Shown here one piece after another: positions 11,770-41,401 of a DNA stretch of 64,000 nucleotides. The notes under the pieces are model-generated. The model did not search any database. It had not been told where the DNA came from and was given only the letters and a program-made list of their open reading frames with translations. The DNA lies in assembly GCF_001723685.1 (NCBI RefSeq), contig NZ_MCBX01000001.1:1-64000 (forward strand), read 5' to 3'. Numbering within the stretch: the stretch's first letter is position 1; each line of letters opens with the position of its first letter. The position numbers were made by a program, and so were the translations under genes. This stretch comes from Candidatus Marithrix sp. Canyon 246 (GTDB lineage Bacteria; Pseudomonadota; Gammaproteobacteria; Beggiatoales; Beggiatoaceae).

Positions 11770-11788
11770 GATTGATCCTCAATTAATT

Positions 11789-11964
11789 CCCCTGAAAGGG
11801 GCTAACATACTAGCCTAGGGCAACGCCCTAGGATTGATTTATTTATAATTTTAGCCCTGAAGGGGCGAGACATACATGATGTATCGCCCTTTCAGGGCTA
11901 AATATGTCATTAATTTAAATCCTAGGGCGTTGCCCTAGGCTGATATGTTAACCCCTTTCAGGGG
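11789..11964. repeat. Nested inverted-repeat element (MITE-like, 176 bp)
   Basis: Two 44-bp arms (11789-11832 and 11921-11964) are near-perfect inverted copies, with three mismatches. Each contains its own small palindromes (cccctgaaagggg and cctagggcaacgccctagg). Between them, 11853-11900 forms another hairpin (tagccctgaaggggcga with its complement). It carries no coding capacity and separates two protease genes. This looks like a non-autonomous palindromic element that could fold into a cruciform. A degenerate relative of the 25-bp repeat follows at about 11978-12002. Confidence 0.85.
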
Positions 11965-12004
11965 CTTTAAATAAATCCGTTTATTCCGTAAATCCGTTGT
12001 ACTA

Positions 12005-12045
12005 ATAAAAAAAAAGCCTAGAACAGACGCTTACTATTCTAGGCT
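12005..12045 (-). terminator. Rho-independent terminator
   Basis: On the minus strand, AGCCTAGAA pairs with TTCTAGGCT across a 13-nt loop and is followed by nine T residues. It lies about 57 bp downstream of the protease gene ending at 12102. Confidence 0.88.
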
Positions 12046-12101
12046 ATACATTGAGTCTATTAATTACAGAGAACGTGCATGTTTTTTGTAATTAAGTTAC
12101 T

Positions 12102-14021: not shown

Positions 14022-14039
14022 TATTATCATCCTCACCCT

Positions 14040-16241: not shown

Positions 16242-17045
16242 AGTTATTTCCTCAAATTTTTTCTCGAAAAATAAGCTTGTTTAATGTAAACAAACCACTT
16301 TTTATGGCAAATAAACGCTACTTTATAGTAGCAGCGACGCACCATCAAGACCTTGCCAAAAGCTAGGGCGCGATTTTAGACAACAAACAACACTATAAGG
16401 AATATTTATATGAAATTTATGAACTTGATTTTAATTGATTAAACTAAACGCCTCCTGCACTATTTGATAACCGGCAGAGAGATTTATCTCGAAGGTAGAT
16501 TGATATTTTCATGATTATTTCCTCAAATAATTTTATTTAATTTTACTAAGATAACTAGTTTTATGTAACTAGTTATTTAGGTTGAGTACATACTAACATC
16601 GTTAATATTTTTTTGCAACATGTTTTTGTAACTGTTTTTTAAAAAAGTATTACTATCAAGTAATTAGACAGTTTTTTTCCTAAATAACTTTAATTTTTAG
16701 GGACAAGTCTATTCTATAAAAGAATTCTATAAAAGTACAACGAATTAAGAAATAAACTAATTTACTCTAAGAAACTAATTAGTTTATTTCTTAATTCGTT
16801 GTACTAAATAAATAGTACAACGAAAAAGCCCTGATTAGGAGCTTTCAGATATAACGGCAAATTTATATCATAAGTGGATTAACTGCATATAATAATACCA
16901 CATAATTATTTCCTCAACACATAATTCTGTAATTAAATATACTAAAATTAATAGTGGGATGTCACTAATTAATTTAGCTAGTGTGCATTATAACACAGTT
17001 ATTTGTTTTTGCAACAACTTTAAACTCAAATACAAGGAATTCACT
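16242..17045. other. Gene-poor stretch with two orphan leaders and an inverted repeat
   Basis: No gene of credible length is seen. On the minus strand, two copies of the cluster's leader (TTGAGGAAATAAT plus ATG) sit at about 16512-16530 and 16903-16915. Each opens only a tiny frame: 22 codons from ATG 16512 and 11 codons from ATG 16903. They look like remnants of lost paralogues. The segment 16734-16805 is an inverted repeat whose ends read agtacaacgaat, the same terminal sequence as the 25-bp repeats. A small hairpin lies near 16310-16335. Confidence 0.6.
16734..16805. repeat. Inverted repeat with agtacaacgaat ends (MITE-like)
   Basis: Arms of about 29 bp (16734-16763 and 16777-16805) pair almost perfectly around a 13-bp centre. 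The outer ends, agtacaacgaatta, match the outer end of the 25-bp repeat family, so both may derive from the termini of one transposon group. It has no coding capacity. Confidence 0.75.
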
Positions 17046-17459
17046 CTAAATATTTAGAAAAGAGCCATCCTGTGAATCTTCGCTTGGTAATACAACTACT
17101 GATGGTAGATAAACATAAGGTATTTTAAAACTGTCAGTTTTCCAATCATATTCAGCATAACAATCAGCTTTTCGCTTATCAATATATTGAATTTGTGTAA
17201 CAAAATTAAATTGTTCTTTATTTGTCACATTAATTATAAAATATTTTTCTGCATTAATTAAGGTAAATCTACCTTTAAAGACACTAACATCCTCAGTAAC
17301 TTGAAATATGATAGGATCAAAAACAGGAATTGTCATTACAATATCAGAAACTCTATTTCCTGCACCATGACATTTTGAACTTAAAGACTTTTCAGCAGCA
17401 AAAGCCGTAGCCATACTACCAATAACAATAGTACTTATTAAATTTTGAATTTTATTCAC
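17046..17459 (-). CDS. Small secreted protein, stand-alone C-terminal module of the S8 cluster
   Basis: This 137-residue protein has a signal peptide (MNKIQNLISTIVIGSMATAFA). The rest corresponds only to the C-terminal module shared by the neighbouring proteases: a first Cys in SKCHGAG, then FDPIIFQVT, LINAEKYFIINV, ADCYAEYDWKTDSFKIPYVY and LPSVVVLPS. It starts at GTG 17459 behind GAGGAAATAACT, which overlaps the stop of the upstream protease pseudogene. It ends earlier than the module in its paralogues, so it may be truncated, or be a secreted binding partner. Confidence 0.65.
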   Translation of the reverse strand: MNKIQNLISTIVIGSMATAFAAEKSLSSKCHGAGNRVSDIVMTIPVFDPIIFQVTEDVSVFKGRFTLINAEKYFIINVTNKEQFNFVTQIQYIDKRKADCYAEYDWKTDSFKIPYVYLPSVVVLPSEDSQDGSFLNI

Positions 17460-17461
17460 AG

Positions 17462-19126
17462 TTATTTCCTCAAATCTTTTATTCCAACTATCGTTGGTTT
17501 ATCTGCTTGAGACAATCTCAAGTCTATTTCATACCAATTCTGACTTTCTAGTATCACAATATCATCATTAGCCGTCACATATTGTGGAAATCCTAATATT
17601 GGTAAATGCAATGTGTGCTTCTTATCATTATAGACAGCATAACATTTATAATTTTGGTCATCTAAATCTGGTTTAGACAGAGTTTTGATTAAACTTTTAG
17701 GATTGAAATCCAAAAAAATATTGAAATCCCCAGAATCCTCATTTAACTGTACATCCAACTTAGCATTTTCAAACAGACCAATCCCAGTATTCCTACCAAT
17801 TAAAGCTTGAACTAGGAATGGAAGTTCTACTTCTCCAAAACTACCATTATTTGTATATCTAAATTCAGGAATACCTCCTTTTCCACAAACCTCAAAACTC
17901 GGTGGCGGAGTAATATCTCTGTTTTCGCAGATTCTCATAGCTTCATGTTGTAAAGCTTGATCTATATTTACACGACCACCTGTTACAGTTTTACCATCTA
18001 GCGATGCTCTTGGATCAACAGTCTTCATCATAACTTGCTTCAGAACATTACCTTCTAAATCAGGGCATTTAGATAACATCAAGCTAACTGCACCAGCTAC
18101 ATATGAACTTGCCATAGAAGTGCCATCTAAAGACTTATAACTATCACCGGGAACAGTGCTATCAATATTCACACCCGGTGCCGCTAAATCTACAGTCATA
18201 GCACCATAACCAGAAAAGTAAGCTAAATCATCATTTTGATCAGTTGCTGCTACAGTAATTATATTATCTAAATCATCATAACGAATGGGATAATATCCAA
18301 TATCAGTATCATTATCCAATGACATATTACCAACCGCAACTACAAACAAATGTCTCTTTTCTCCAGCCGCTTTAATTGAATCATAAAGTGCTTGAGATTT
18401 ACAATCAGCACATGCTCAACTATTATTGCTAACTTTAGCTCCCATATTAGCAGCATAATTTATAGCATTAATAACATTAGATAATGTTCCAACACCATCA
18501 GCATCTAAAAATTTTAATGCCATTACTTTAGCATTGGGATTTACAGAAGTAATGGTACCAGCGATATGTGTTCCATGATAATTATCATCAAATGGATCAC
18601 CATCATTATTATGGAAATCATAACCATAAACATCATCTATATAACCGTTACCATCATCATCTTTACTGTTATTTGGAATTTCCCCTTCATTTTTCCACAT
18701 ATTAGCAGCTAAATCAGTATGAGTATAATCTACACCAGTATCTATGACTGCTATGACAGTATCCTTAGAATTTTCTATGTTTTGCCAAGATTCAATTGCA
18801 TTAACTTTAGCACCATTATAATTTTGGCTAGTTTCAAGCTTAATTAAAAAATTAGGTTCAGCATATTCAATGCTATTATTTTTATTTAATTGCTCAATAA
18901 CATTTTTTGTAGTATCACCGCTGACTTTCCAAAGCTGCATCCCAATACCGGATAATCTTCTTGCGCTGGCAACACTAAATTGATTTTGTAGAGCAGAAAT
19001 ATCTTGCGATCGCACACTTTTTTCTGCTTTAAATTTGACAATGACTTCACCTTCAACATATTTAGATGTTTCGGCTGATACAACCGAAGCAGAAAATAGC
19101 ATATGTAAAAGTATAGATAGTTTCAT
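17462..19126 (-). pseudogene. S8 serine protease interrupted by one in-frame TGA
   Basis: From ATG 19126 (MKLSILLHMLFSASVVSA signal peptide, GAGGAAATAATT Shine-Dalgarno) the frame runs through the propeptide, Asp (AVIDTGVDY) and His (NYHGTHIAG). It meets TGA at 18416-18418 and continues without a shift through the Ser motif (LDGTSMASSYVAGA) and the shared C-terminal module to TAA 17462. In the two intact paralogues the stop position is Trp (NLSWGC and NNSWGC), so a single TGG-to-TGA change explains it. Everything else appears intact, so the event is recent, or a sequencing error, or is read through. Translated alone, the 5' part would lack the catalytic Ser. Confidence 0.85.
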
Positions 19127-19174
19127 AATTATTTCCTCAAATAATAATTTAAAACAAAAAAATCCCGACACCAC

Positions 19175-19981: not shown

Positions 19982-22900
19982 TTAATAAATAGATCCCAAC
20001 TTATAAGACACTAATCTTCCTTCCAATAGCGGCACTAGCATCCAACAATTCCTCTGCTTATCACAACGGAAATCAAAATCCCAGATCGCCTTATTACTAG
20101 GTAAATTCAGAGTAAATAAATGCGGTTCAATTGAATTTTTTGATAAATTCCAGACGCGCACTGTGCTATCTTGACTCGCAGTTATTACTTGTTGATTATC
20201 AGGGCTAAATATCACGCGAGTTATACTATCTGTATGACCCATCAATTGTTTAACTTTTTCAAATTTATCAGCATGATAAAGATTAATCAAATGCCCTTTA
20301 CCAACATTAGCTATCAATTTATCATTTGGACTAAAATTAACATCTATAATCCACTGCTTCTCATTTACTGATTTCAGCGGCTTATCATCATAAAGCTTCC
20401 AAAGTCGCATATGATTATCATCACCACCACTTAATAATTCTGTGCTTTTATTATTAAAAGCAATCGCAAATATTCTGCCCTTATGAGCCGCTTTATAAAA
20501 ATAAGCCTCACCTTCCAGATCAAATAAACCAATTTGACCATCAGCACCCGCTGTAGCTACATACTTATCATTAGCTGATATAGAAACACTATAAATTGAT
20601 TTTTTATGCCCCAAAAAAACTTTTTGTTCTATCAAACTATCCTTTTTCATTTGCCATAATTTAGCTGTTTTATCAAAACTAGCTGATACTAGTAAGTTAC
20701 CTTTTGAATTAAAAGCTAAGCGCGTTATCCTTTTTTGGTGAGCCTGTTGTTGCCATAATAATTTCAATGAACCAAGTTCATATAATTGCAACATTCCTGA
20801 ATTAAATCCTACAGCAACATATTGGTTTTCTGGAGTAACAGCTACTGATACCGGTTTCCCAGTCAAGTTATTAATGATTTTTTGCTTAGCAGATAAATTA
20901 GCATCCCAGCGTCTAATTCTTTTATTAGTGCTTGCTGTATAAATTTTATTGTTATAAGTGGCAATATCATTAATAGTACCTACAGGTTCTTGTAAAATTC
21001 TTAAAATCACCCCCGATTCGGTATCCCAAATACGCAAAGTTTTATCTTTACCAGCTGAAACTAGCCGTTTACCATTGGCAATAAAACTTAAAGCATAAAC
21101 CTTATCCTTATGATCTTGCAGACTATATTTAATTTTAAACTGTTCCCATAATCGCACTGTGGAATCACTACTAGCAGTAGCTAATAAACTACCATCCGGG
21201 CTAAAAGCCAGCTTTTCAACTGTATCCATATGAGCTGTTAAATGCTCAACAACATTACCAGTTTTTATATCCCATATATAAACAGAATTATCATGAGAAC
21301 CGCTAGCCAGCCACTTTCCTGTAGGATCAAAAACTAAACCACCATCTGAAATCGCCTTCTTATGCCCAACCAAAGTACGCACTTTCTCAGCAGTATCAAA
21401 ATCCCATAAAGTAATATCATTACCCTTTCCACCAGTAGCTAAATATTCACCTCTAGGGCTAATAGCCAATGCGTGAACAGCATCATCTGCAATCCATGTC
21501 TTTAATTTTTCGCCAGTGCTAGCTGACCAAAATATAATACGTTTATCAGCTCCAGCACTGATTAACCACAATCCATTTGGATGAAATCCAATACTAAATA
21601 CATGTTCTGTATGCCCCTCTAAAAGCTTAAATAATTTTCTTTGATTGTTGTGCTTAAACAAAGCCAAATAACCATCATATCCTGCGACAGCTATACGACT
21701 AGCATCTGAATTAACTGCTATGGCAAGCAAAGATTTCTCTGTTTCTGCATATTCCCACTCAGAGCCGCTACCCATTAACTTACTAAACCATTTTAATAAA
21801 TTTTTTATATGATTATCATCATCATCAATATTAGATAATACCGTTCTAGCTTTAGCGTAATTTTCAAATTTGGCTAACCAAGCCGCATTATTAAGTTGTA
21901 AATTGATTACTGCTTGTTCTGCTCGTTGCGTTTGTTTCTGAGTTTGAGTTAGACTAATAATAGAAATAAATGCCGCTAATACAGCAACAACTGCAAACAA
22001 GCGCATAACCACCAAACGATCATGTAATTTTTTAGCAACTTTAGCTTGTTGCTCAGCACGTTTAGCTTGTTCTCGTGCGCTTTCATCTAAAAAGCGCATT
22101 ACTAAATCAAATTTTTGACCATAACGTTTAGCCCATTGTGAAGTTGGCTTAAATTTATCGCGCCATGCCAAAGCATTATCTAATTCTGGAAATCGCAATA
22201 AAGAACATTCATGTTGCTGCCAACTACAAGCATCTTCTTCTAAACGTTTATATAATTTAGCTGATTCAGCTTCTTCTTTGCTCCATTTTTTTAAACGTTG
22301 CCAGTTACGAATTAAACTTTCATGAGTAATATCAATTATAGATTCTGAATTTAAAGCTTTCTCAATCGGCGGAGTTAAAAAACTGCGTGGTTCTTCACGA
22401 AAAACATCAATTACTTCAGCAACTTGTTGCCATGACACTTCAGCTTGTTGAGCAATTTTTTCTAATTTAATTGGGCGACGTGTATCACGACGATAATTAC
22501 CATGTTGACTCAGATTATGAAATAATATTTCAGCAATTTTTTGCTGTTTTGGTTCTAATTCATTAAATGCTTCATCAGCATGATGAGATAAAGCATGAGC
22601 TAAACCACCAACTTGTTCATAATCATTCAATGTTAAAACAATTTTGTCATCATTTTGCCGTAAATTCCACATGCGCATTAAGGCATGTTGTAACAACGGC
22701 AATTGATCAAAATCATTACCAGCATCATTCAATAGTTGATTAACTAAAACTGGATCAATATCACCACCAAATACTCGCGCTGGCGTAACAATCGCCTCAC
22801 GCAACTGTTCACGAGTTAAGCGTGGAGTAAGAAATTGCCCCTCATTAATAGCCTCTGGCAAACCATGAAATAAAGCACAATTACCAATAAAGTCTGAGCG

Positions 22901-23446
22901 CATAGTAATAACAACATATACATTACTAGCCAATAATAAAGCCACAAAAGCTTCAGCTTCATCTTCTTCACCTAAATCATAATAGCGAAAAATTTCTTCA
23001 AATTGATCAACAAACAACAACAAATTAGTACCATCTGGCAATGGAGATTGTTGTAAAATAGTATTTAAACTCAAACTACCACGCCGTAATTGCGCCTGTA
23101 AAAATATCTTCGCTTGTTCACGCTCAGTGAGTTCAGGCAAATAAGCCTTACTAAATTCAGTATCTAATAAAGCATCGACTAAATTAGTAAAAGGATGATT
23201 ACCCGGGCGCATTTCAGCGACTTGCCACTTAACACCAGCCTTGCTTAAAAAACCATTTTCCAAATCCGCCAATAAACCAGTGCGCACCAATGAAGATTTA
23301 CCACAACCAGAACGCCCTACAACGGCTAAAAAAGGGTTTTTTGCTAAACGTGTAATAAGTTGATCAATATGTTTTTCACGCCCAAAAAATAAGTCAATTT
23401 CATTACGTTGAAAGGAACGTAAACCGGGATAGGGAAATTTATTCAT
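19982..23446 (-). CDS. STAND NTPase with WD40 propellers (second receptor)
   Basis: This 1154-residue signalling NTPase is a probable sensor in a conflict system. The N-terminal NTPase has Walker A GRSGCGKSS (Lys50) and Walker B LLLFVDQFEEIFRYYD, and the start MNKFPYPGLRSFQ is shared with its paralogue upstream. A helical and winged-helix-like region follows, then one transmembrane segment near residues 475-500 (MRLFAVVAVLAAFISIISLT). About fourteen WD40 repeats fill residues 560-1150, enough for two seven-bladed propellers. They are more divergent from one another than those of the paralogue. It is the last gene of the operon: TAG of hicA, two bases, then its ATG. The trigger is unknown. Confidence 0.9.
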   Translation of the reverse strand: MNKFPYPGLRSFQRNEIDLFFGREKHIDQLITRLAKNPFLAVVGRSGCGKSSLVRTGLLADLENGFLSKAGVKWQVAEMRPGNHPFTNLVDALLDTEFSKAYLPELTEREQAKIFLQAQLRRGSLSLNTILQQSPLPDGTNLLLFVDQFEEIFRYYDLGEEDEAEAFVALLLASNVYVVITMRSDFIGNCALFHGLPEAINEGQFLTPRLTREQLREAIVTPARVFGGDIDPVLVNQLLNDAGNDFDQLPLLQHALMRMWNLRQNDDKIVLTLNDYEQVGGLAHALSHHADEAFNELEPKQQKIAEILFHNLSQHGNYRRDTRRPIKLEKIAQQAEVSWQQVAEVIDVFREEPRSFLTPPIEKALNSESIIDITHESLIRNWQRLKKWSKEEAESAKLYKRLEEDACSWQQHECSLLRFPELDNALAWRDKFKPTSQWAKRYGQKFDLVMRFLDESAREQAKRAEQQAKVAKKLHDRLVVMRLFAVVAVLAAFISIISLTQTQKQTQRAEQAVINLQLNNAAWLAKFENYAKARTVLSNIDDDDNHIKNLLKWFSKLMGSGSEWEYAETEKSLLAIAVNSDASRIAVAGYDGYLALFKHNNQRKLFKLLEGHTEHVFSIGFHPNGLWLISAGADKRIIFWSASTGEKLKTWIADDAVHALAISPRGEYLATGGKGNDITLWDFDTAEKVRTLVGHKKAISDGGLVFDPTGKWLASGSHDNSVYIWDIKTGNVVEHLTAHMDTVEKLAFSPDGSLLATASSDSTVRLWEQFKIKYSLQDHKDKVYALSFIANGKRLVSAGKDKTLRIWDTESGVILRILQEPVGTINDIATYNNKIYTASTNKRIRRWDANLSAKQKIINNLTGKPVSVAVTPENQYVAVGFNSGMLQLYELGSLKLLWQQQAHQKRITRLAFNSKGNLLVSASFDKTAKLWQMKKDSLIEQKVFLGHKKSIYSVSISANDKYVATAGADGQIGLFDLEGEAYFYKAAHKGRIFAIAFNNKSTELLSGGDDNHMRLWKLYDDKPLKSVNEKQWIIDVNFSPNDKLIANVGKGHLINLYHADKFEKVKQLMGHTDSITRVIFSPDNQQVITASQDSTVRVWNLSKNSIEPHLFTLNLPSNKAIWDFDFRCDKQRNCWMLVPLLEGRLVSYKLGSIY

Positions 23447-23448
23447 AA

Positions 23449-23622
23449 CTAACTCAAACTCTTAATTATATGTTTAGCAAGATATTCATTGATTTCACGA
23501 TGCCTTGGTATTGGTTGAGAAACTTGTGTTTCTGGATTCTGATACCAATCATGCTTTCCCCCATGACGAATAAAAATACATCCCATTTTTTCAAGTCTTG
23601 AAATCAAATCTCTTCTCTTCAT
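23449..23622 (-). CDS. hicA: HicA-type mRNA interferase toxin
   Basis: This 57-residue frame starts at ATG 23622, overlapping the stop of hicB by 4 bp (ATGA). It reads MKRRDLISRLEKMGCIFIRH, then GGKHDWYQNPE, then QPIPRHREINEYLAKHIIK. The pattern R-L-x3-G-[FC]-x3-R-x-[GS]-[GK]-H, with the likely catalytic His24, matches the HicA double-stranded-RNA-binding fold. HicA cleaves mRNA and is blocked by HicB. Here it lies between two STAND NTPase genes and ends 2 bp before the next start, so it belongs to one long message. Confidence 0.88.
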   Translation of the reverse strand: MKRRDLISRLEKMGCIFIRHGGKHDWYQNPETQVSQPIPRHREINEYLAKHIIKSLS

Positions 23623-23801
23623 GCTGCTATTAACTCCGCTTGATGTCTTACAGCAGGAATATAACTACTGTCAAGTTCCTTATAAACATCTATGAGATTT
23701 TCTTTCAATTCATCTAACGTTTCTCCTTGAGTCATGTAATCAGGATATTCATTAAGATATCCTAACCACATATCTTTATCTTGCCAGTATGTATATTTCA
23801 T
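23619..23801 (-). CDS. hicB: HicB-type antitoxin (short form)
   Basis: This 60-residue protein starts MKYTYWQDKDMWLGYLNEYP and continues with DYMTQGETLDELKENLIDVY, the partial RNase-H-like fold of HicB (strand pair, then a helix with L-x-E-L-x-x-N-L). The C-terminal DNA-binding domain of long HicB proteins is missing, so it may not repress its own promoter. Its ATG overlaps the stop of the upstream STAND gene (ATGA). Antitoxin before toxin is unlike E. coli hicAB but is common among short HicB pairs. Confidence 0.85.
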   Translation of the reverse strand: MKYTYWQDKDMWLGYLNEYPDYMTQGETLDELKENLIDVYKELDSSYIPAVRHQAELIAA

Positions 23802-26800
23802 TTGCTTTTCTCCATTTCAAATTTAGACTTCAGTTCTTTTATTCTTTGCTCATAAACTTGCAAACATAATGGCACTGATTGTTCACATTGAGGATTTCGT
23901 ATGTTATGTAACCAAGGTATTAAATACTGATGTTTAAATTTATCTTGTGCTTGCTTGGTAAAATCCTTTATTAATCCATGATATAAATTATAATTTTGAT
24001 TCTCAATTTCCCATAATAATGGATTGTGACAAATAAAAGCTTCGGCTTTTTCTTCAATATTATTACAGAAATGAGGTTTATTTGTATTGCTATCCCTACT
24101 AGTTTGTCTTTGTCGTATAAATTCCACTTCTTTTTTTACGATTACTTTTTTATAATCTAAAAAGAAGTCTTTACGTTGTTCATTAGTAAGATGGCGTGGA
24201 ACAATCTTATTAGCATAATTAATTAATTCTTGAGTATTTGGAAATAAGTGCCATATGTTTGCTGTATTATCTTTGGAGGCAGTAATAATACTCTTGCTAT
24301 CTGGACTAAATTCGGCATAAGCAACAATATCTTTATGTTCATCAAGTAAATATAACATTTTACCAGTTTCAACATCCCAAACACGAGCTGTCTGATCTTT
24401 TGAAGCAGTAATTACTTGATTTCCATCGGGGCTAAAACTGACATGATAAACATCAGATTTATGTCCAGTTAATATATGAAGTACTTTACCAGTTTTTACC
24501 TCCCATAAGCGTGCTGTATCATCCCAAGAACTGGTTGCAATCATTGATCCATCGGGACTAAATTCAGTATTATAAACAGTTTTTTTATGCCCATTCAATA
24601 TTTTTAATAAATCACCAGTTTCAACATTCCATATACGCGCAGTATGATCTTTTGAACTAGTAACTATCATTGAACTATCAGAATTAAAAGCTACATTTTT
24701 GATGACTTTGTCATGTCCAATAAAATCTTTAATAAAAATACCACTATCAGCATTCCATAATTTAGCAGTGGTATCAGAAATAGTAATAATATATTTACCA
24801 TTTTTACTAAATTTTGCTTTAACTACTTTCTCTTTATGTCCTGACAATACCTTAATTAATTTTCCAGTTTTCACATCCCATAAACGAGCCTTTTTATCCC
24901 AAGATGCTGTTATTACACGTAAATTATTATAATTAATAGCTACATCATAAATTACATTTCCATGTCCCTTTAGCACATGTAATAAATTTCCATTTTTGGC
25001 ATTCCATAAGCGAGCAGTATTATCAAATGATCCTGTTACAATTAATTTGCCATTAGGGCTAAAAGCTGATTGATATACACGTTCTTTATGCCCAGCCAAT
25101 ACCTTTAGCGTTTTACCAGTTTTCACATCCCATAAACTCGCAGTTTTATCCCATGAACTAGTTAATGCTAATTTGCCATTAGGGCTAAATATTGCTCTTC
25201 TAACCCCTTCTTTATGTCCAATTAAAGTTTTAAAATAATCTTGATTATTAATATCCCAAAGACGAGCAGTATTATCCATTGAAGCAGTTGCTATATGTTT
25301 ACCATCTGGGCTTAGAACAACTTGAGAAATAAACTTATTATGTCCAGCCAATAGATTTAAGTGATTACCAGTTTCAGCATCCCATATACGAACTGTTGTA
25401 TCTTTAGAAACACTTATAAGTTTGGAACCATCAAGATTAAATATTGCTTGAGATACCCAATCTTTATGCCCAGAAAATGTTTTCTTAAGTTGACCTGTTT
25501 CCACTGACCATAAACGTATAGTATTATCCATAGAACTAGTAACTACACTTAAACCATCAGGGCTAAAAGCAGCATGAAAAATTCCTGCTGTATGTCCTTT
25601 TAAAATATGAATTAATTCACCGCTATCGCTCCATAAACGCGCAGTATTATCCATTGAAGCAGTAACAATTTTATTACCATCAGGGCTAAAAGCGGCATAA
25701 TATATACCATATTCATGTCCCATCAGAGTCTTTAATGGTTTACCTATTTTAAAATCCCATAAACGAACTGTTTTATCTAAAGATGTTGTAAGAATTGTAT
25801 TAGCATTAAAGCTTATATGAAATATTGCCTTGTTATGCCCTTTTAAAACTCTTACTAATTTACCATCAGATACTGACCATATTCTCACATTACCACCACC
25901 TCCAGCAGTAACTACATAATCTCCATCTGGGCTAAAAGCTGCATGTAAAATACCCTTTTTATGCCCTAATAACCTTTTAAGACGCTTACCGCTTTTAATA
26001 TCCCATAAAGATGCGATATTATCCATTGAAGCAGTAATAATCATTGATCCATCTGGGCTGAAACCAGCATAAGACACTGCTTGATTATGTTTATTAAAAT
26101 TTTTAATTGGAATACGACGTTTAATATCCCAAAGTACAGCTGTTTTATCAGCTGAAGCTGTTAGTAAATATTTACCATTTGGGCTAAAAGCTACATGATT
26201 AACTGCATCAGTATGAGCATCCATCACTAAACGTTCACGTTGCTTAATCACAGCTCTATACAGTTTTTCTTTAGCTTCAGGTAAATAAGGTTTATCTTGT
26301 GCAGACATATCTTTAGGTAAGGCTTCTAAAGCTAATAAAATACCATTGGTAGTATTACCTTTTTCAGTTTCCTGTCTTGACAAATCAGATAAAAATAAAC
26401 CCTTAGATACTTTCGCAGCTTGTTCAGCTTTTTGTGCTTGAACGCCAAACCATCCTGCTAAGATAGCAAAACTTAAACTAACTAAAAAACCTATACCAAT
26501 AAAAGTGACTTTTTGACGTACTTTTTTTAACTGTTCTTGTTGTTCTCGTACATGTTCTTGTTCACTAGCCTCTAAAAAACGCATTACTAAATCAAAATGT
26601 TTGCCATAACGCGCTGCCCATTGAGCCGTAGGTTTTCTATCAGAATTATCACGCCATGCAATCGCCATTTCTAAATTTGGAGAATGTAAAAGAGCTTCTT
26701 CTTTTTTTTCCCAAAACTCAGCTTTTTCTTGTAAGCGCAGATACATTTTGGCAGCGTCAGCTTCTTCTTCACACCATTGTGTTAAACGTTGCCATTGACG

Positions 26801-27913
26801 AATTAAAGCTTCATGACTAATATCTAAGATATTATCATCAACTGGAGGCATTAAAAAATTACGTCCATTTCTACGAAAGACTTCAACCACTGCCATCACT
26901 TCATCAAATGAAACCTCAGCCAGTTTTGCCACTTCATCTACAGATACTAAACGACGAGTATCACGATTCTCATGACTACGCTCACTAAGATTTTTAAATA
27001 AAATCTCAGCAATATGCTGTTGTTCAGCAGTTAATTCTGCATAAGCTTCATCAGCATGTTTAGATAAGGCATGGTTAAATCCACCAATACGATCATAATC
27101 ATCTAAAGTTAAATGTTTTTTGTCAGATAAATGCCACATGCGCATTAAAGCATGTTGTAACAATGGTAATTGATCAAAATCATTACCAGCATCATTCAAT
27201 AATTGATTAACTAAAATCGGATCAATATCGCCATCAAATACTCTAGCAGGAGTAACAATAGCCTCACGTAATTGATCACGAGATAAGCGCGGGGTTAAAA
27301 ATTGACTCTCATTAATAGCTTCCGGTAAATTCTGAAATAAAGCACAATTACCAAGAAACTCAGAACGCATGGTAATTACGACATAAATATGATTAGCTTT
27401 ACTACTAGCTAATAATAAAGACACAAAAGCTTCAGCTTCTTCAGAATAACCACGATCATAATAACGAAAAATTTCTTCAAATTGATCAACAAACACCAAC
27501 AGATTAGTATCTTTAGACTGCCATAACTTATCTAAAGCTAAAGAACCACGTTGTAATTGTGCTTGTAAAAATAACTCAGCTTCATCACGATTAGTCAATT
27601 CTGGTAAATAACCATCATTAAAACTAGTCTCTAATAAAGCCTTGCTTAAACGAACAAATGGACGATTACCCGGGCGCATTTGGGCAATCTGCCAACGCAC
27701 GCCGGCACTAGCTAAAAAACCAGTTTTTAAATCAGCTAATAAACCGGTGTTTACTAAGGAAGATTTACCGCTACCAGACAAGCCTACAACTGCTAAAAAA
27801 TGGCTTTGCCCAAGACGGGTAATTAATTGATCTACATGTTGTTCACGCCCAAAGAAGATGTCGATTTCATCACTTTGAAAAGGGCGCAAACCGGGATAAG
27901 GAAAATTACTCAT
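23798..27913 (-). CDS. STAND NTPase with 16 WD40 repeats (first receptor)
   Basis: This protein has 1371 residues from ATG 27913 (MSNFPYPGLRPFQ). I chose that start because it overlaps the TIR gene stop as ATGA and aligns with the paralogue; the longer frame from 27946 only reads through the TIR gene end. The NTPase has Walker A GLSGSGKSS (Lys50) and Walker B LLVFVDQFEEIF (about 138-149). A transmembrane helix (about 490-512) is followed by a linker, then sixteen WD40 repeats (about 575-1240) that are strikingly alike (GHK...FSPDG...TAS.DNTARLWD). A 130-residue helical tail follows. The architecture fits a membrane-anchored sensor of the bacterial STAND/NLR-like class, working with the TIR effector upstream. 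Confidence 0.92.
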   Translation of the reverse strand: MSNFPYPGLRPFQSDEIDIFFGREQHVDQLITRLGQSHFLAVVGLSGSGKSSLVNTGLLADLKTGFLASAGVRWQIAQMRPGNRPFVRLSKALLETSFNDGYLPELTNRDEAELFLQAQLQRGSLALDKLWQSKDTNLLVFVDQFEEIFRYYDRGYSEEAEAFVSLLLASSKANHIYVVITMRSEFLGNCALFQNLPEAINESQFLTPRLSRDQLREAIVTPARVFDGDIDPILVNQLLNDAGNDFDQLPLLQHALMRMWHLSDKKHLTLDDYDRIGGFNHALSKHADEAYAELTAEQQHIAEILFKNLSERSHENRDTRRLVSVDEVAKLAEVSFDEVMAVVEVFRRNGRNFLMPPVDDNILDISHEALIRQWQRLTQWCEEEADAAKMYLRLQEKAEFWEKKEEALLHSPNLEMAIAWRDNSDRKPTAQWAARYGKHFDLVMRFLEASEQEHVREQQEQLKKVRQKVTFIGIGFLVSLSFAILAGWFGVQAQKAEQAAKVSKGLFLSDLSRQETEKGNTTNGILLALEALPKDMSAQDKPYLPEAKEKLYRAVIKQRERLVMDAHTDAVNHVAFSPNGKYLLTASADKTAVLWDIKRRIPIKNFNKHNQAVSYAGFSPDGSMIITASMDNIASLWDIKSGKRLKRLLGHKKGILHAAFSPDGDYVVTAGGGGNVRIWSVSDGKLVRVLKGHNKAIFHISFNANTILTTSLDKTVRLWDFKIGKPLKTLMGHEYGIYYAAFSPDGNKIVTASMDNTARLWSDSGELIHILKGHTAGIFHAAFSPDGLSVVTSSMDNTIRLWSVETGQLKKTFSGHKDWVSQAIFNLDGSKLISVSKDTTVRIWDAETGNHLNLLAGHNKFISQVVLSPDGKHIATASMDNTARLWDINNQDYFKTLIGHKEGVRRAIFSPNGKLALTSSWDKTASLWDVKTGKTLKVLAGHKERVYQSAFSPNGKLIVTGSFDNTARLWNAKNGNLLHVLKGHGNVIYDVAINYNNLRVITASWDKKARLWDVKTGKLIKVLSGHKEKVVKAKFSKNGKYIITISDTTAKLWNADSGIFIKDFIGHDKVIKNVAFNSDSSMIVTSSKDHTARIWNVETGDLLKILNGHKKTVYNTEFSPDGSMIATSSWDDTARLWEVKTGKVLHILTGHKSDVYHVSFSPDGNQVITASKDQTARVWDVETGKMLYLLDEHKDIVAYAEFSPDSKSIITASKDNTANIWHLFPNTQELINYANKIVPRHLTNEQRKDFFLDYKKVIVKKEVEFIRQRQTSRDSNTNKPHFCNNIEEKAEAFICHNPLLWEIENQNYNLYHGLIKDFTKQAQDKFKHQYLIPWLHNIRNPQCEQSVPLCLQVYEQRIKELKSKFEMEKSK

Positions 27914-29310
27914 TGCTGTAAAACCTGTATAAAAGTTGGCACACAAGTATCAGGATATGGCACCGAACCATCTAATATATGTAAATTAGGTAAATTAATA
28001 TTTATTGGTGACTTTTCTCTATCAGGGTGGTTATATACTGCAATTGCTTTTAAAGCCTCTCTACCGTCACGTTTACCTTCAGCACGACGACACTGTAACA
28101 CTTGCTGTCGTACCCAAACTAAATCTGTATTTATATTATTTAATATAATTACAGCATCACAAAACTGTAAATTATTATCTAAATCTTCGCGTATTTTAGC
28201 AGGCGGTGTGTTATGATCAATTGCCATAGGTAAACTACATGCAAACCCTGATTTCACTAATTCTCTTTCAACTACTTTTGCTAAGTCTAATTCTTGAGGA
28301 GCAGCATTAATAAAAATAAACTCACCATTTGTTGTCAATGGTTCCTCATCATTTCTTTTTTCTAAAGCCTGCATGATTTGTTGTTGAAATTCCACCATAC
28401 TGACAGCCATAACTGTGCTACCAGTTAATAACTTACGATGATTTAAATCTGTAATTTCATTTAATTTTAATTTACGATTGCGCCATTGTAAAATTGGTAA
28501 TCCTAACTCTTTAGCGCAATCATATTGTAATTGTGGTGTACTCATACCCGGTGGGCGTTGAGGTGCAATTGCACTTAATAATTGCACAAATAATACCGAT
28601 TTTTGTAGATCAGAGTCAATAGCATTTTTTAATTCTTGTTTAGTATTAAAAGCATAGAATTTATTGGGTAATACGCGCAAACCTTGTAATTCTAAATTAC
28701 GCTTTAATTCATCGCGTTGAAAAAATAAATCATCACTGACTTCTGCTAAAAAAATAGTATATTCTGATGAAACAGGAACAATATCAGTTTTTAATACATC
28801 CAACTTTTCTACTATATCAATAGCTAAATCTTCAGTTTTCCAATGATATTGTTTAGAATCAAAACTTAAAGAACGTGGGCGAGCATTGATTGGATCAGCT
28901 TCCCAAAAAGTATAACCTCGTAAATCACTCAAGGATTCTATGCGTTCAGCGGCTTGATATTCAATAATAAACACCCTACCCGAGTCAACACCAACTTGAG
29001 CTAAAAAAGCGTTTAATTCTAAACGACACTGTTCTGATTTCAAATAAGCTGGAGATAAAACCAACAAAAATACTGCGGAATTTTCTAAGTATTGAATGGA
29101 GTTATATGTTGGGGCTAAATGACCGGGTAAAATTTGATCTAACCACAATGAATAAGCATTTGCACTACCGATTTTTTGAGCTAAAAAAATTTTTAATGTG
29201 TCAACCAGTGTTGTTACCCAGCCTTTATTTACACCGGCAAATATTTCATTATCAACATGAGCATAACTAACAAAGATGTCATATTGATATTGAGGTACAT
29301 AAACGGACAT
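27910..29310 (-). CDS. Triple TIR-domain protein, probable effector
   Basis: This 466-residue protein has three TIR-like units in tandem: about residues 8-135, 183-315 and 328-455. The first is canonical (YDIFVSYAHVDNEI start, SLWLDQ strand, VFLLVLSPAYLKSEQCRLEL), and Glu98 in CRLEL is placed like the NADase Glu of active TIR domains. The second (YTIFLAEVSDDLFFQRDEL) and third (FIFINAAPQELDLAKVVERE) keep the fold pattern but lack that Glu, so they probably serve in assembly. Bacterial TIR effectors degrade NAD+ or make signalling nucleotides. It is the first gene of the operon, with its stop overlapping the first STAND gene. Activation by that receptor is inferred. Confidence 0.88.
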   Translation of the reverse strand: MSVYVPQYQYDIFVSYAHVDNEIFAGVNKGWVTTLVDTLKIFLAQKIGSANAYSLWLDQILPGHLAPTYNSIQYLENSAVFLLVLSPAYLKSEQCRLELNAFLAQVGVDSGRVFIIEYQAAERIESLSDLRGYTFWEADPINARPRSLSFDSKQYHWKTEDLAIDIVEKLDVLKTDIVPVSSEYTIFLAEVSDDLFFQRDELKRNLELQGLRVLPNKFYAFNTKQELKNAIDSDLQKSVLFVQLLSAIAPQRPPGMSTPQLQYDCAKELGLPILQWRNRKLKLNEITDLNHRKLLTGSTVMAVSMVEFQQQIMQALEKRNDEEPLTTNGEFIFINAAPQELDLAKVVERELVKSGFACSLPMAIDHNTPPAKIREDLDNNLQFCDAVIILNNINTDLVWVRQQVLQCRRAEGKRDGREALKAIAVYNHPDREKSPININLPNLHILDGSVPYPDTCVPTFIQVLQQ

Positions 29311-37004: not shown

Positions 37005-37066
37005 TGTTGATTGCTTTAATAAGTTATTAAAGTGGCTTATTATAACAAATTTATTATATATATATG

Positions 37067-37091
37067 AGTACAGCGAATTACGTGGATAAAC
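37067..37091 (+). repeat. 25-bp dispersed repeat, copy B
   Basis: This is an exact copy, in the same orientation, of 41088-41112 and the reverse complement of 6-30. It lies 62 bp before serC and about 140 bp before the AAA-TOPRIM-DUF262 cassette, so copies B and C bracket that cassette as direct repeats. Confidence 0.85.
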
Positions 37092-37099
37092 TAATAAGA

Positions 37100-37228: not shown

Positions 37229-38485
37229 ATGATCATTCAATCTTTTAGCTTAAAAAATTATCGTTCGTATGTTGAACACACCCGTATTGAATTACGCCCC
37301 TTAACGCTTTTGTTTGGGTATAACAATTCTGGTAAAAGTGGATTATTGCGTGCTTTGCCATTGATTGCGGATTCAGTTAATGGGCAATCATCTCGTACCG
37401 CATTAGCATTAGATAGTGCCGCTGTGCGGGGGAGCCATTTTAGTGATTTATTATCTCGTCTCGGTGGGAGACAAGAATTTGATTTAGAATTATCTTTGGG
37501 TGATACTGACATTCATACTCTAAAATGGACATTTCGTGAATTGCCAAGCTTGAGAACCCATATTATTTCAAATTTCAGTATATTAGACTCAGATAAAACA
37601 ATACTTATGTCTGCTGAATGGAATCTTGATTCTTCAACAAATCAAAAACTAAGTAACGAGTATGATGTTCAAAAGCCGGTTATTTATAAAAAAATACTTA
37701 AATTTGAAGGACTATTACCATCATTTTTGCATGATAACTCAGAGTTGCCCACTAAACTGCGCTCTTTGATTGAACAATGTCAGCAATTGAAAAATATCAA
37801 TATACAATGGTTAGGTGCTGTTCGGCATCTACCAATTAGAAATAATCCATTTCAAGGTGCTGCGCCTCAACAGTTAGAAGCAGATGGGCGCGGCGCAGCT
37901 GATATTTTGGCTTATGATCAGATTTTTGAAGACTTATTAATTTTACCAAAAGTCTCTGCTTGGTATGAAAAAAATGTGCAACAAAAAATTGTGATCGAAA
38001 AAATGCCGGATCATTTCCAGATTAAGTTACAAGCTTTAACTAATTTGCCTTTTCAGGTAAATCTTGTTGATGTAGGAGAAGGATTGATACAGCTCTTACC
38101 AGTGCTGGTTGCTGCTACTATGGCAAGCGAGGGTAGTATTTTAGCTATAGAAGAACCGGAATCACATCTTCACCCACGATATCATGCCGCACTAGCAGAA
38201 TATTTTTTTGATCTTGCTAGGCAAGATAATCCTCCTCAACTTTTACTTGAAACCCATTCTGAAAATTTTCTATTGCGAACTCAACTTGAGATTGCACGAG
38301 GAAAACTGGATCCAAAATCGGTGATGGTTTATTGGGTACGTCAATTTGATGATGGTCGGAGTATTGCTGAGCCGGTCACTTTTGACCAGCAAGGACGACC
38401 ACAAGGTGAATGGCCAAGAAATGTTTTTTATACTGATATAGAATTATCTAAACAATTGGTCCAAGAACGGCGTAAACATCTATGA
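37229..38485 (+). CDS. AAA/ABC-type ATPase with DUF3696-like C-terminus
   Basis: This 418-residue SMC/RecF/OLD-class ATPase has Walker A GYNNSGKSGL near residue 31. Walker B and the D-loop form LAIEEPESHLHPRYHAALAE (about 308-327), then LLLETHSENFLLR (switch His). The tail VTFDQQGRPQGEWPRNVF resembles the DUF3696 ending. It is soluble. It is the first gene of a tight three-gene unit, overlapping the next by 4 bp (ATGA). In OLD and PARIS-type systems such ATPases sense phage products and control a TOPRIM nuclease. The same logic is inferred here from the neighbour. Confidence 0.88.
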   Translation: MIIQSFSLKNYRSYVEHTRIELRPLTLLFGYNNSGKSGLLRALPLIADSVNGQSSRTALALDSAAVRGSHFSDLLSRLGGRQEFDLELSLGDTDIHTLKWTFRELPSLRTHIISNFSILDSDKTILMSAEWNLDSSTNQKLSNEYDVQKPVIYKKILKFEGLLPSFLHDNSELPTKLRSLIEQCQQLKNINIQWLGAVRHLPIRNNPFQGAAPQQLEADGRGAADILAYDQIFEDLLILPKVSAWYEKNVQQKIVIEKMPDHFQIKLQALTNLPFQVNLVDVGEGLIQLLPVLVAATMASEGSILAIEEPESHLHPRYHAALAEYFFDLARQDNPPQLLLETHSENFLLRTQLEIARGKLDPKSVMVYWVRQFDDGRSIAEPVTFDQQGRPQGEWPRNVFYTDIELSKQLVQERRKHL

Positions 38486-39477
38486 GAGTGATTTTAAAAG
38501 CTGAGATGTTTGCTTGCCAACACATCAATCAACTTGATCTTATTTCATTAATAAAATTAGGCTTTGATTGTCGTCATTTGATACAGGTAGAGCCACTAGA
38601 TGCTAATGAAGTGTCTAATTGGCTTGATAAACAAAGTGATGATATTCGTGATGAATGTGAATGGGTATTTGAATCAGGCTATAGTTTAGATAGAGACGAA
38701 TATGGTCAATTTTCACCACTTACAATACAAGTTGCTGATGTTGATAAACCTCAATGGCTCTTAAAAGTTCCGGTATTACCATTAAAAATCGCCTTAAAAT
38801 TTTTGGCTCAAGATTTCATTATATTTGTTGAAAATAGACGTAATGATTCTGCTTTTTTGAGAGCCACGGCTACTGGGTGGCGAAAAGATAAATTAGAAGA
38901 ACTTTTAAAAAATGGTGGAATAAAATTTGAGGGAGGCGGTGGAATTGGTGAAATTTTGAAATGGATTGAAGAAATTGCCAATTTTCCAGAAAAATGTCAG
39001 CGTAGTTTTGCATTGTTTGACAGTGATGCTCTTAAACCTAATAAACCAAGTAAACAATCTACTAAAATTGTAACAGCTTGCAAGGAAATAATTCCTTATC
39101 ATCAATTAAAACGAAGGGCGATTGAGAATTATTTGCCTTATGGAGTGTTGTCAGCATGGATGGGCATGAATGTGCATCAAAAAATTCAAGATGTTTCTAA
39201 GAAAAATATTGTTAATGCTTTCAAACAACTAAGCTATGAGCAACGTCATCATTTTAATATGAAAAAAGGTTTTAAAGCTGATGAAAATAAAGATGTTGGT
39301 GACTTTTATGATAATATTTCTAATGAAGTGAAAAAAACCTTAGAACATGGCTTTGGAGATGATATTGCTGAATTATTTAAAGAGCAACAATTCAAAATAC
39401 AAGAAGATTGGTTGTTAAAAGATAATTTAACAGAAGAGCTTAACCCAATGTTGGAAAAACTGTTGTCATTAGTATAA
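38482..39477 (+). CDS. TOPRIM/DUF4435-like putative nuclease
   Basis: This 331-residue protein has no close family that I can name, but its central part carries the TOPRIM landmarks: FIIFVENRRNDSAFLRA (Glu in the E-x5-D position), a Gly-rich turn (FEGGGGIGEI), FALFDSDALKP (D-x-D) and LKRRAIENYLP, a signature common in DUF4435 proteins such as AriB of PARIS. About 110 residues precede this core, and the C-terminus is helical. Overlap with the ATPase gene and a 1-bp gap to the DUF262 gene tie it to one functional unit. Nuclease activity is an inference. Confidence 0.65.
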   Translation: MRVILKAEMFACQHINQLDLISLIKLGFDCRHLIQVEPLDANEVSNWLDKQSDDIRDECEWVFESGYSLDRDEYGQFSPLTIQVADVDKPQWLLKVPVLPLKIALKFLAQDFIIFVENRRNDSAFLRATATGWRKDKLEELLKNGGIKFEGGGGIGEILKWIEEIANFPEKCQRSFALFDSDALKPNKPSKQSTKIVTACKEIIPYHQLKRRAIENYLPYGVLSAWMGMNVHQKIQDVSKKNIVNAFKQLSYEQRHHFNMKKGFKADENKDVGDFYDNISNEVKKTLEHGFGDDIAELFKEQQFKIQEDWLLKDNLTEELNPMLEKLLSLV

Positions 39478-39478
39478 A

Positions 39479-41029
39479 ATGAGCATTCAAAATTCTATCT
39501 CTGATCCACAAATTAAATATCTCTACCAATTACTTGATCAAATTGAAAGCGGTAAATTGTTTGTGCCTAAATTTCAACGTGGTTTCATTTGGAAAGATGA
39601 ACAACGTTTAGATCTTTTGCGGAGTATTAAATCTGGCATACCAATAGGCAGTCTTCTCGTTTGGGAAACGACCAAATATCGTCTGGCAACATTTGATAAA
39701 ATTGGGGGACTTTCTGTACCCAAACCGCCAGAATCCGGTATAACGCGCACCTATTTGTTAGACGGACATCAAAGACTTTCAACACTTTTTGGGGCACTGA
39801 AATGTCCTGTGAATAAATCGAATATCGTCGATGATATTGATTGGAGAGTGTATTATGACTTAGAAGAACAAGATTTTCTGTTGCAATTACGCAAAGACGC
39901 TAAATCCACATGGATGCCGGTTAATGTTTTATTGGATAATTTGGCATTGTTGAAGTTTTTGCGTAAGTTGACGGATGATGAACTCATTGAGCGAGCTGAT
40001 CAAGTTTCCAAAATGTTTTTAAGTTATAAAATACCACTGGTGGTGGTTGAAACAAACGACTTAGAACATGCAACTACCACCTTTCAACGCATTAATAGCA
40101 GCGGCACTCGTATGAGTGATCTTGATATGGTTGCTGCTTTAGTTTGGAGTAAACAATTTGATTTAAGAGAAAAAATATTAGAGGTACAAGAAAGACTAGC
40201 CGAGGTGGGCTGGGAAAAGTTGGATGAAAAATTCATTTTGTCAGCTTGTAGAGGGATTTTAAATTTAGCACTTTATAAACCGAATGCTGAGCAAACAAGT
40301 AATGAACTCAAGAAAAATCCAAAAATACTTGATCAGGCGGCAGGCTATTTGATTCAAGTGGCGAAATTTCTTAAAGAGTGTGGTATTTTTTCTCCAAAAG
40401 TCTTGCCTTACAATTATCAGAGTGTCCTATTAGCTGAGGCTATGAGAACTAACCTACTCCCGAATGATGCTGTTTTTCAGGAACTGAAAAATTGGCTGTG
40501 GCGATCCGCTTACACTGAAGCGTTTATTGGTATAAACGACACTAGTATGGCAAATGCGGTTAAAGATATTATCTCGTTAGCCAAGGGAAATGTTTATAAA
40601 ATTGGAATCAAGGAAAAAATTGCGCCTTTACCAAAAGGGTTTCATTTTAAATCCTCGCGTGCCAAATTATTGGCATTAAGATTAGCTGAACTGACACCGC
40701 AAACAGTCGATGGAAAAACTTTAAATGTGGGTGAATTGCTTGGCTTACATGGGAGTTATGCCATACTACGCCTTATTTCTACTTCGTCAGCACCCGAAAA
40801 CTGTTTTATTATTGAACCGCAAGCATTTTCTCAATTTAGAAATTATTTGTTGAATTCCGAAACAATTTGGACAAATGATTTTCTACGCAGTCATGCCATT
40901 TCTGAGACAGCCACACAAGCACTTAAAAAAGGTGACTATAAAAGTTTTCTGTCAGAACGCAGAAAAACGCTCATTGAATTGGAAAAAGAGTTTATACAAC
41001 CATTGGGGCTTGACTATGATGTTGAATAG
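39479..41029 (+). CDS. DUF262 (ParB-like/GmrS-type) protein
   Basis: The N-terminal 120 residues contain the DUF262 signature: FVPKFQRGFIWKDEQRLDLL, SGIPIGSLLVWE and YLLDGHQRLSTLFGAL. DUF262 has a ParB-related fold that binds nucleotides and occurs in type IV restriction (GmrSD) and other defence proteins. A further conserved stretch, TTFQRINSSGTRMSDLDMVA, follows near residue 205, typical of the long DUF262 group. The rest (250-516) is helical with no HNH motif seen, so it lacks the fused DUF1524 nuclease of GmrD. It is the third gene of the cassette. Confidence 0.88.
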   Translation: MSIQNSISDPQIKYLYQLLDQIESGKLFVPKFQRGFIWKDEQRLDLLRSIKSGIPIGSLLVWETTKYRLATFDKIGGLSVPKPPESGITRTYLLDGHQRLSTLFGALKCPVNKSNIVDDIDWRVYYDLEEQDFLLQLRKDAKSTWMPVNVLLDNLALLKFLRKLTDDELIERADQVSKMFLSYKIPLVVVETNDLEHATTTFQRINSSGTRMSDLDMVAALVWSKQFDLREKILEVQERLAEVGWEKLDEKFILSACRGILNLALYKPNAEQTSNELKKNPKILDQAAGYLIQVAKFLKECGIFSPKVLPYNYQSVLLAEAMRTNLLPNDAVFQELKNWLWRSAYTEAFIGINDTSMANAVKDIISLAKGNVYKIGIKEKIAPLPKGFHFKSSRAKLLALRLAELTPQTVDGKTLNVGELLGLHGSYAILRLISTSSAPENCFIIEPQAFSQFRNYLLNSETIWTNDFLRSHAISETATQALKKGDYKSFLSERRKTLIELEKEFIQPLGLDYDVE

Positions 41030-41087
41030 AATATCGCCATGCTGGAATTAGATTCCTGAAATTAAAAATATTTGATTAATATACGTG

Positions 41088-41310
41088 AGTACAGCGAATT
41101 ACGTGGATAAACTATTGAAGCCTAATCCATTGCCACAGATGCGGTTAGCTTATGATAGGGTTCAAGAGAATGTTAGCTCAATATGATGTAAAAAAATATA
41201 TGTCTATAGAGATTGGGTAGCACATGGTAAAAACCAAAAAAAACCACCATCATCAGATATGAAACCTTTAGAATTTATAAAATTAGTTTATCCACGTAAT
41301 TCGTTGTACT
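41088..41310. mobile_element. MITE-like element bounded by 25-bp inverted repeats (copies C and D)
   Basis: Copies C (41088-41112) and D (41286-41310) are inverted, with one mismatch, and enclose about 170 bp. One plus frame spans the whole element, repeats included, from agt 41088 to taa 41312. It reads NYVDKLLKPNPLPQMRLAYD, a single TGA, then IYVYRDWVAHGKNQ and FIKLVYPRNSLY. It looks like the decayed remnant of a small gene whose ends coincide with the repeats. The region 41030-41362 holds nothing else. Confidence 0.65.
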
Positions 41311-41401
41311 AATTATAATTATATGGAGTCGAGATAATCCTTTTGTACTAGACAAACAAATTTTGTCTGCAATAATGGCAATTATTAGTACCTTATTTAA
41401 A

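What the first reader, a model, noticed from the sequence alone, without database searches (positions are those of the whole stretch)
37229..41029. AAA ATPase + TOPRIM/DUF4435-like + DUF262 cassette: candidate anti-phage system
Seen: three genes joined by a 4-bp overlap and a 1-bp gap: an OLD/RecF-class ATPase, a protein with E-x5-D, D-x-D and RRAIENYLP landmarks, and a DUF262 protein without an HNH tail. Established: ATPase plus TOPRIM nuclease pairs act in OLD, Gabija and PARIS defence, and DUF262 occurs in GmrSD-type restriction. Inferred: this is a three-component variant. I am not aware of a described system with this composition.
Basis: partly seen in the sequence, partly recalled or inferred. 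Interest (0 to 1): 0.78.

Follow-up and report, generated by a model that had tools for sequence, protein, structure and literature searches.

The report
Three-gene candidate anti-phage cassette (PDC-M55)
A compact set of three genes (an ATPase, a nuclease of the TOPRIM fold and a DUF262 protein) that travels together through many bacteria and is probably a phage-defence system; a defence database already lists it as an untested candidate, but which protein probably cuts, and what the parts are related to, was worked out here.

Summary
In detail: three intact co-directional genes at 37229-41029, joined by a 4-bp overlap and a 1-bp gap. The claim that the composition is undescribed is too strong: PADLOC-DB 2.0 holds all three, full length and in order, as candidate system PDC-M55A/B/C (E 5e-72, 3e-41, 9e-97). 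No paper in the held library names or tests it. Added here: (1) the 331-aa protein, without any Pfam match, has a TOPRIM fold (AlphaFold2 pLDDT 92; best solved relatives OLD nucleases, Z 9.4, and PARIS AriB, Z 8.3; profile match to DUF4435 with every motif aligned) and an invariant acidic site; (2) the trio is inseparable: ATPase beside it in 44 of 45 and DUF262 in 47 of 48 non-redundant loci; (3) the ATPase is sister to Menshen's NsnB, not to AriA, yet the third gene is not NsnC, and a separate (broken) Menshen locus sits in the same genome; (4) one relative fuses the DUF262 protein to TIR-NB-ARC-WD40, another to TPRs. Best reading: a Menshen-like ATPase/DUF262 sensing pair that controls a PARIS/OLD-like TOPRIM nuclease. 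Function is inferred, untested; an unread 2025 paper on Menshen polymorphism may lower novelty.

The parts
37229..38485 (+). Gene A: OLD-family ABC ATPase, 418 aa (PDC-M55A). Walker A G30...G35-K36-S37, invariant G283/G285, Walker B E308-x-P310-E311, H-loop T342-H343; no fused TOPRIM
   Evidence: sister to Menshen NsnB in tree
38482..39477 (+). Gene B: 331-aa TOPRIM-fold protein (PDC-M55B); N-terminal part ~1-105 of untested fold, TOPRIM part ~107-331 with E117, D122, G153-G154, D180, D182, R212, E215, Y217
39479..41029 (+). Gene C: DUF262 (GmrSD_N, ParB/Srx-type NTPase) protein, 516 aa (PDC-M55C); FQR (32-34) and DGHQR (95-99) motifs intact, no DUF1524/HNH
37066..37093 (+). copy of a dispersed 28-bp repeat just upstream of gene A
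   Evidence: 60 copies genome-wide with up to 3 mismatches, 0 with the reversed control pattern
41087..41114 (+). identical direct copy of the same repeat just downstream of gene C
41284..41311 (-). inverted copy of the repeat (2 mismatches)
   Evidence: sister-genome homology on the left stops at 37048

Best explanation
A three-protein immune cassette of the PDC-M55 family. Shown (by sequence or model): intact ABC ATPase, TOPRIM-fold nuclease candidate with complete acidic site, DUF262 NTPase without HNH tail; the three are co-inherited. Inferred: A (ATPase) oligomerises and holds B in check or scaffolds it; C (DUF262, ParB-like NTP pocket) together with A senses infection, either a feature of incoming DNA or a phage protein; on sensing, B becomes an active two-metal nuclease that stops the infection, most likely by an abortive-type cut of nucleic acid. 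Because B resembles DUF4435/AriB by profile more than the OLD TOPRIM, I slightly favour RNA (tRNA-type) over DNA as substrate, about 55 to 45; the fold scores do not decide this.
For: All three PADLOC PDC-M55 profiles match full length in order. B model pLDDT 92.4, pTM 0.88; the solved chains that align best are TOPRIM domains of OLD (6nk8 Z 9.4, 171 aligned, 4.3 A; 6njv 9.2), PARIS AriB (8ux9_A Z 8.3; 8v46_D 7.9), OLD 6p74 8.3, GajA 6.4 and retron Eco2 6.4, with the first non-TOPRIM row at 5.7. Strand 112-116 ends at E117, strand 175-179 at D180-x-D182; alignment ranges (110 to AriB 19) put E117 at about AriB E26, the residue whose mutation kills AriB (PMC12409363; register inferred from range starts). 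hhalign to a DUF4435 set: probability 87, E 4e-6, with E117, D122, GG, DSD and IENY in register. E117, D122, G153, G154, D180, R212, E215 invariant in 31 sequences. A beside B in 44/45 and C in 47/48 non-redundant loci with room; pairwise identities of A, B, C correlate at r 0.86-0.91. C of one relative is one 1748-aa frame with TIR-NB-ARC-WD40, another ends in TPRs. Four copies lie on viral contigs, one beside a CI repressor and integrase. Patchy distribution: 11 of 398 phylum genomes, 10 of 42 in the family, absent from the one sister species held.
Against: No phenotype anywhere. In most named genomes the trio sits alone between housekeeping genes (serC here; others) rather than in a clear defence island. 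Foldseek alone gave no E below 0.001 for B; the TOPRIM call rests on VIA-align, profile-profile comparison and motif topology. Another PADLOC candidate (PDC-M63AB) showed no defence when tested (PMC12409345). Nothing tells substrate, trigger or whether A represses or activates B.
Confidence: 0.6

Rival explanations
1. A modification-dependent restriction system: C reads modified phage DNA as GmrSD/BrxU do, and the A-B pair replaces the missing HNH tail as the DNA-cutting part, without killing the cell.
For: C is closest in the PDB to the type IV enzyme BrxU (7p9k, 7e-18 by sequence; Foldseek 1e-11) and lacks the HNH tail; A is closest in the PDB to OLD and GajA, which cut DNA. Dazbog's DUF262 has been linked to methylated DNA (review PMC10952713).
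Against: B is nearer to DUF4435/AriB, a tRNase family, than to OLD TOPRIM by profile (87 against 4 percent probability). A DNA methyltransferase next door was seen only in two Vibrionaceae copies.
Confidence: 0.3
2. It is simply a subtype of Menshen (NsnABC).
For: ATPase family is sister to NsnB, apart from OLD/AriA with support 96/93; DUF262 present; NsnB profile hits A at 6e-44. A 2025 paper on Menshen domain polymorphism exists (NAR gkaf357, in the reference lists of PMC12839542 and PMC12704722) and may include it; it is not held, so unread.
Against: Third gene not homologous to NsnC (hhalign probability 0.0-0.1); gene order differs (ATPase-TOPRIM-DUF262 here; NsnA-NsnB-NsnC there); the same genome holds a separate locus that meets the Menshen profiles at 3e-110 and 5e-115 while the trio's C meets NsnA only at 8e-10.
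Confidence: 0.12
3. Not a defence system but a genome-maintenance or element-stability module (RecF/OLD-like ATPase with a TOPRIM repair nuclease).
For: TOPRIM and RecF-type ATPases also serve repair (general knowledge); the trio often lies alone among core genes.
Against: Patchy distribution, absent from the sister species, presence on viral contigs, fusion to TIR-NB-ARC-WD40, kinship of the parts with Menshen, PARIS and OLD.
Confidence: 0.08

Closest known systems
PDC-M55 (PADLOC-DB 2.0 candidate system, profiles PDLC04707-04709)
   Same: All three proteins match full length, in the same order; all 31 aligned B proteins match PDC-M55B
   Different: Nothing at the level tested; PADLOC gives no function or mechanism
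Menshen (NsnA DUF262, NsnB ATPase, NsnC)
   Same: ATPase is sister to NsnB; a DUF262 partner is present
   Different: Third gene is TOPRIM-fold and not NsnC, gene order differs, DUF262 protein only distantly similar
PARIS (AriA ATPase + AriB DUF4435/TOPRIM)
   Same: Separate ABC ATPase and TOPRIM genes; B fold and motifs resemble AriB
   Different: B is below the Pfam DUF4435 threshold that defines PARIS, has about 90-105 extra N-terminal residues, the ATPase is not in the AriA branch, and there is a constant DUF262 gene
OLD / Gabija GajA / retron Eco2 nucleases
   Same: ABC ATPase plus TOPRIM; best fold and sequence matches in the PDB
   Different: The two domains are separate proteins here and a DUF262 partner is added
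GmrSD / BrxU type IV restriction enzymes
   Same: DUF262 domain with DGxQR pocket
   Different: No DUF1524/HNH nuclease

Membership tests
PDC-M55 (PADLOC candidate) | PDC-M55A, B and C profiles matched by three adjacent genes | tested here: met
   4.9e-72, 2.9e-41, 9e-97, full length, adjacent, same strand
PARIS | AAA_15 or AAA_21 ATPase over the score used to define PARIS (PMC9122126) | tested here: met
   AAA_15 93 bits, AAA_21 66 bits
PARIS | DUF4435 (PF14491) at 27 bits or more next to the ATPase | tested here: not met
   no PF14491 match in the window protein or any of 31 homologues; only profile-profile similarity
PARIS | ATPase of the AriA branch | tested here: not met
   groups with NsnB, apart from DUF4435-linked ATPases and OLD (96/93); the AriA set is small
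Menshen | NsnB-type ATPase | tested here: inconclusive
   sister group, not inside; NsnB profile 6e-44 against 5e-115 for the genuine NsnB in the same genome
Menshen | NsnC as third component | tested here: not met
   no PADLOC NsnC match; hhalign probability 0.0-0.1
TOPRIM nuclease (OLD/DUF4435 type) | TOPRIM fold with E after strand 1 and DxD after strand 3 | tested here: met
   (predicted model, not a solved structure)
TOPRIM nuclease (OLD/DUF4435 type) | metal-dependent nuclease activity | not testable with these tools
   needs biochemistry
GmrSD / type IV restriction | DUF262 domain | tested here: met
   4.4e-27
GmrSD / type IV restriction | DUF1524 HNH nuclease domain | tested here: not met
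   no Pfam match, no conserved HNH pattern
anti-phage defence system | protects cells from phage | not testable with these tools
   no assay possible; none found in the held literature

The most novel reading that the evidence does not exclude
A mechanistically new immune type in which a DUF262 (ParB-like) NTPase and a Menshen-type ATPase jointly gate a PARIS-like TOPRIM nuclease, i.e. the sensing pair of one system wired to the killing domain of another, with further natural fusions of the sensor to TIR-NB-ARC-WD40 or TPR modules.
Probability: 0.35. Interest if true: 0.62.

Novelty: new member of a known kind. Interest (0 to 1): 0.45.

Why it matters
It turns an anonymous catalogue entry (PDC-M55) into a testable model with named catalytic residues, and suggests that ATPase/DUF262 pairs swap their third gene (NsnC in Menshen, TOPRIM here). 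If confirmed it would link Menshen, whose mechanism is poorly known, with PARIS, whose mechanism is known.

Tried and rejected
Single-sequence relatives of the 331-aa protein in genome contigs: none; an alignment-derived pattern was needed. Full 12-sequence alignment as a genome-contig query: no stretch conserved enough. Sequence-profile search of B against the PDB: nothing meaningful. Foldseek on B: no E below 0.001, AriB only rank 4; VIA-align resolved it. B against NsnC: unrelated. B in phage records: none; in plasmids three partial weak matches. Papers: no hit for PDC-M55 or for DUF4435 with DUF262; the Menshen polymorphism paper is not held. Promoter scan no better than shuffled sequence, so operon structure rests on spacing only. 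The N-terminal ~105 residues of B were not folded alone, so their fold is open.

Full report
Observation. All are intact. Pfam sees AAA_15/AAA_21 in the first and GmrSD_N (DUF262) in the third; the middle protein has no Pfam match. One small correction: the acidic motif is E117-x4-D122.

Identity. PADLOC-DB answers the naming question: the three proteins match PDC-M55A (4.9e-72), PDC-M55B (2.9e-41) and PDC-M55C (9e-97) over their whole length and in order. PDCs are putative candidate systems found by guilt-by-embedding, mostly without experimental test (PMC12988326); another PDC that was tested showed no activity (PMC12409345). I found no paper that mentions PDC-M55 or DUF4435 together with DUF262.

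The trio is a unit. Starting from the middle protein I collected homologues from sampled whole genomes, GTDB contigs and viral contigs. Of 48 non-redundant copies, 45 have room upstream and 44 of those have gene A there; all 48 have room downstream and 47 have gene C. The exceptions are a fragment (L111) and L075. Pairwise identities of A, B and C over 22 loci correlate at 0.86 to 0.91. Hosts include Gammaproteobacteria (Thiomargarita MAGs, Chromatiaceae, Veronia), Alphaproteobacteria, Magnetococcales, myxobacteria, Desulfobacterales, Acanthopleuribacter and an actinobacterial MAG. The survey was baited with B, so it shows that B comes with A and C, not the reverse.

The middle protein. AlphaFold2 with a 31-sequence alignment gives pLDDT 92.4 and pTM 0.88. 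From residue 107 on, the order of elements is that of TOPRIM: strand 112-116 ending in E117, strand 147-151 followed by GG153-154, strand 175-179 ending in D180-S-D182. VIA-align ranks OLD TOPRIM domains (Z 9.4, 171 residues, 4.3 A), PARIS AriB (8.3), Thermus OLD (8.3), GajA (6.4) and retron Eco2 (6.4) above every unrelated chain (5.7 and below). Z values near 8 would be weak on their own; the coherence of the list and the profile result carry the claim. hhalign against a DUF4435 set gives probability 87 and E 4e-6 with E117, D122, GG, DSD and IENY in register; against OLD TOPRIM 4 percent, same register; against NsnC 0.1. E117, D122, F125, G153, G154, D180, R212, I214, E215, Y217 and P219 are invariant in 31 sequences. 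The AriB alignment starts 110 to 19, which puts E117 on AriB E26, the residue whose mutation abolishes tRNA cleavage (PMC12409363); this register is inferred from the range starts.

The other two. A has intact Walker A, Walker B and H-loop residues, invariant or nearly so in 26 sequences. In a tree with ATPases from Menshen loci, DUF4435 loci and OLD proteins, the PDC-M55 ATPases form one group (97/96) joined to NsnB (100/100) and apart from OLD and AriA (96/93); the AriA and OLD sets are small and hold long branches. C has the FQR and DGxQR residues in all or nearly all of 27 sequences, no HNH pattern, and BrxU as nearest solved protein.

Menshen in the same genome. The host genome holds a separate Menshen locus on contig C19 (L114): NsnA 3e-110, NsnB 5e-115, and an NsnC reading frame cut short at 171 aa. 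This is a useful internal control: Menshen profiles fit that locus very well and the trio poorly.

Hints of function. In L030 (genome G101, a Magnetococcales MAG) gene C is a single 1748-aa frame: DUF262, then TIR, NB-ARC and WD40. In L025 it continues into TPR repeats. Such tails are typical of sensing and immune proteins (general knowledge). Two Vibrionaceae-type copies have a C5 cytosine methyltransferase on the other strand downstream, and one lies between a CI repressor and an integrase. A Sphingomonas copy has a CAP12/Pycsar-type TIR protein nearby. Many other copies stand alone among core genes.

Local setting. The trio lies between serC and a VTT/DedA-type gene. It is flanked by identical direct copies of a 28-bp repeat (37066, 41087) plus an inverted one (41284); the genome has 60 copies, often as inverted pairs 49 bp apart, and none of the reversed control pattern. 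In the only other genome of the genus, which lacks the trio, homology to the serC side stops at 37048, just before the repeat, and the right-hand neighbour is on another contig. So the cassette came in, or the region was rearranged, near repeat copies; which, I cannot tell. The flanks are 91-92 percent identical to the sister species, so the contig is native to the host.

Mechanism. Shown: composition, predicted fold, motifs, co-inheritance. Inferred: A and C sense, B cuts. By analogy with PARIS, where an AriA hexamer holds AriB until a phage protein releases it (PMC12409363), A probably controls B. The role of C is the open question: it may bring DNA-modification sensing (as in GmrSD, BrxU) or NTP-state sensing (ParB fold). 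I give 0.6 to the TOPRIM-effector immune cassette in general, and only a slight lean to RNA as target.

Verdict. A real, conserved, probable defence cassette, already catalogued as PDC-M55 and not functionally described as far as I could find. An unread 2025 paper on Menshen polymorphism could lower novelty further.

Noticed in passing
G000 contig C19:18462-21192 (L114:3462-6187): A separate Menshen locus in the same genome: NsnA (3e-110), NsnB (5e-115) and an NsnC frame that stops at 171 aa where relatives have about 310, so probably broken.
   Followed up: partly
window 19982-29310 (-): TIR protein (466 aa) overlapping an nSTAND1-WD40 protein, followed by a second protein of the same build; no PADLOC match for the first two; looks like an NLR-type locus 8 kb from the trio.
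   Followed up: partly
L030:2984-8230 (-): Gene C of a Magnetococcales copy is one 1748-aa frame: DUF262 + TIR + NB-ARC + WD40.
   Followed up: partly
window 37066, 41087, 41284 and 57 other places in G000: Dispersed 28-bp repeat, mostly inverted pairs 49 bp apart, REP-like; single copies flank the trio.
   Followed up: partly
L055:8281-9420 and L056:10640-11806: C5 cytosine DNA methyltransferase downstream on the opposite strand of the trio in two copies on viral contigs; possible modification partner.
   Followed up: no
L060:4442-6225: A second ATPase gene with a 189-aa partner directly upstream of the trio in a Thiomargarita MAG; by eye another small ATPase + nuclease-like pair.
   Followed up: no
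G000 C15:37138, C11:17591, C43:62449: Three further DUF4435 genes in the host genome (one broken by stops), two of them next to ATPases: PARIS-like loci.
   Followed up: no
window 10153-19174 (-): Run of related subtilisin-like proteases, one apparently split over two frames (17462-18349 and 18416-19174).
   Followed up: no
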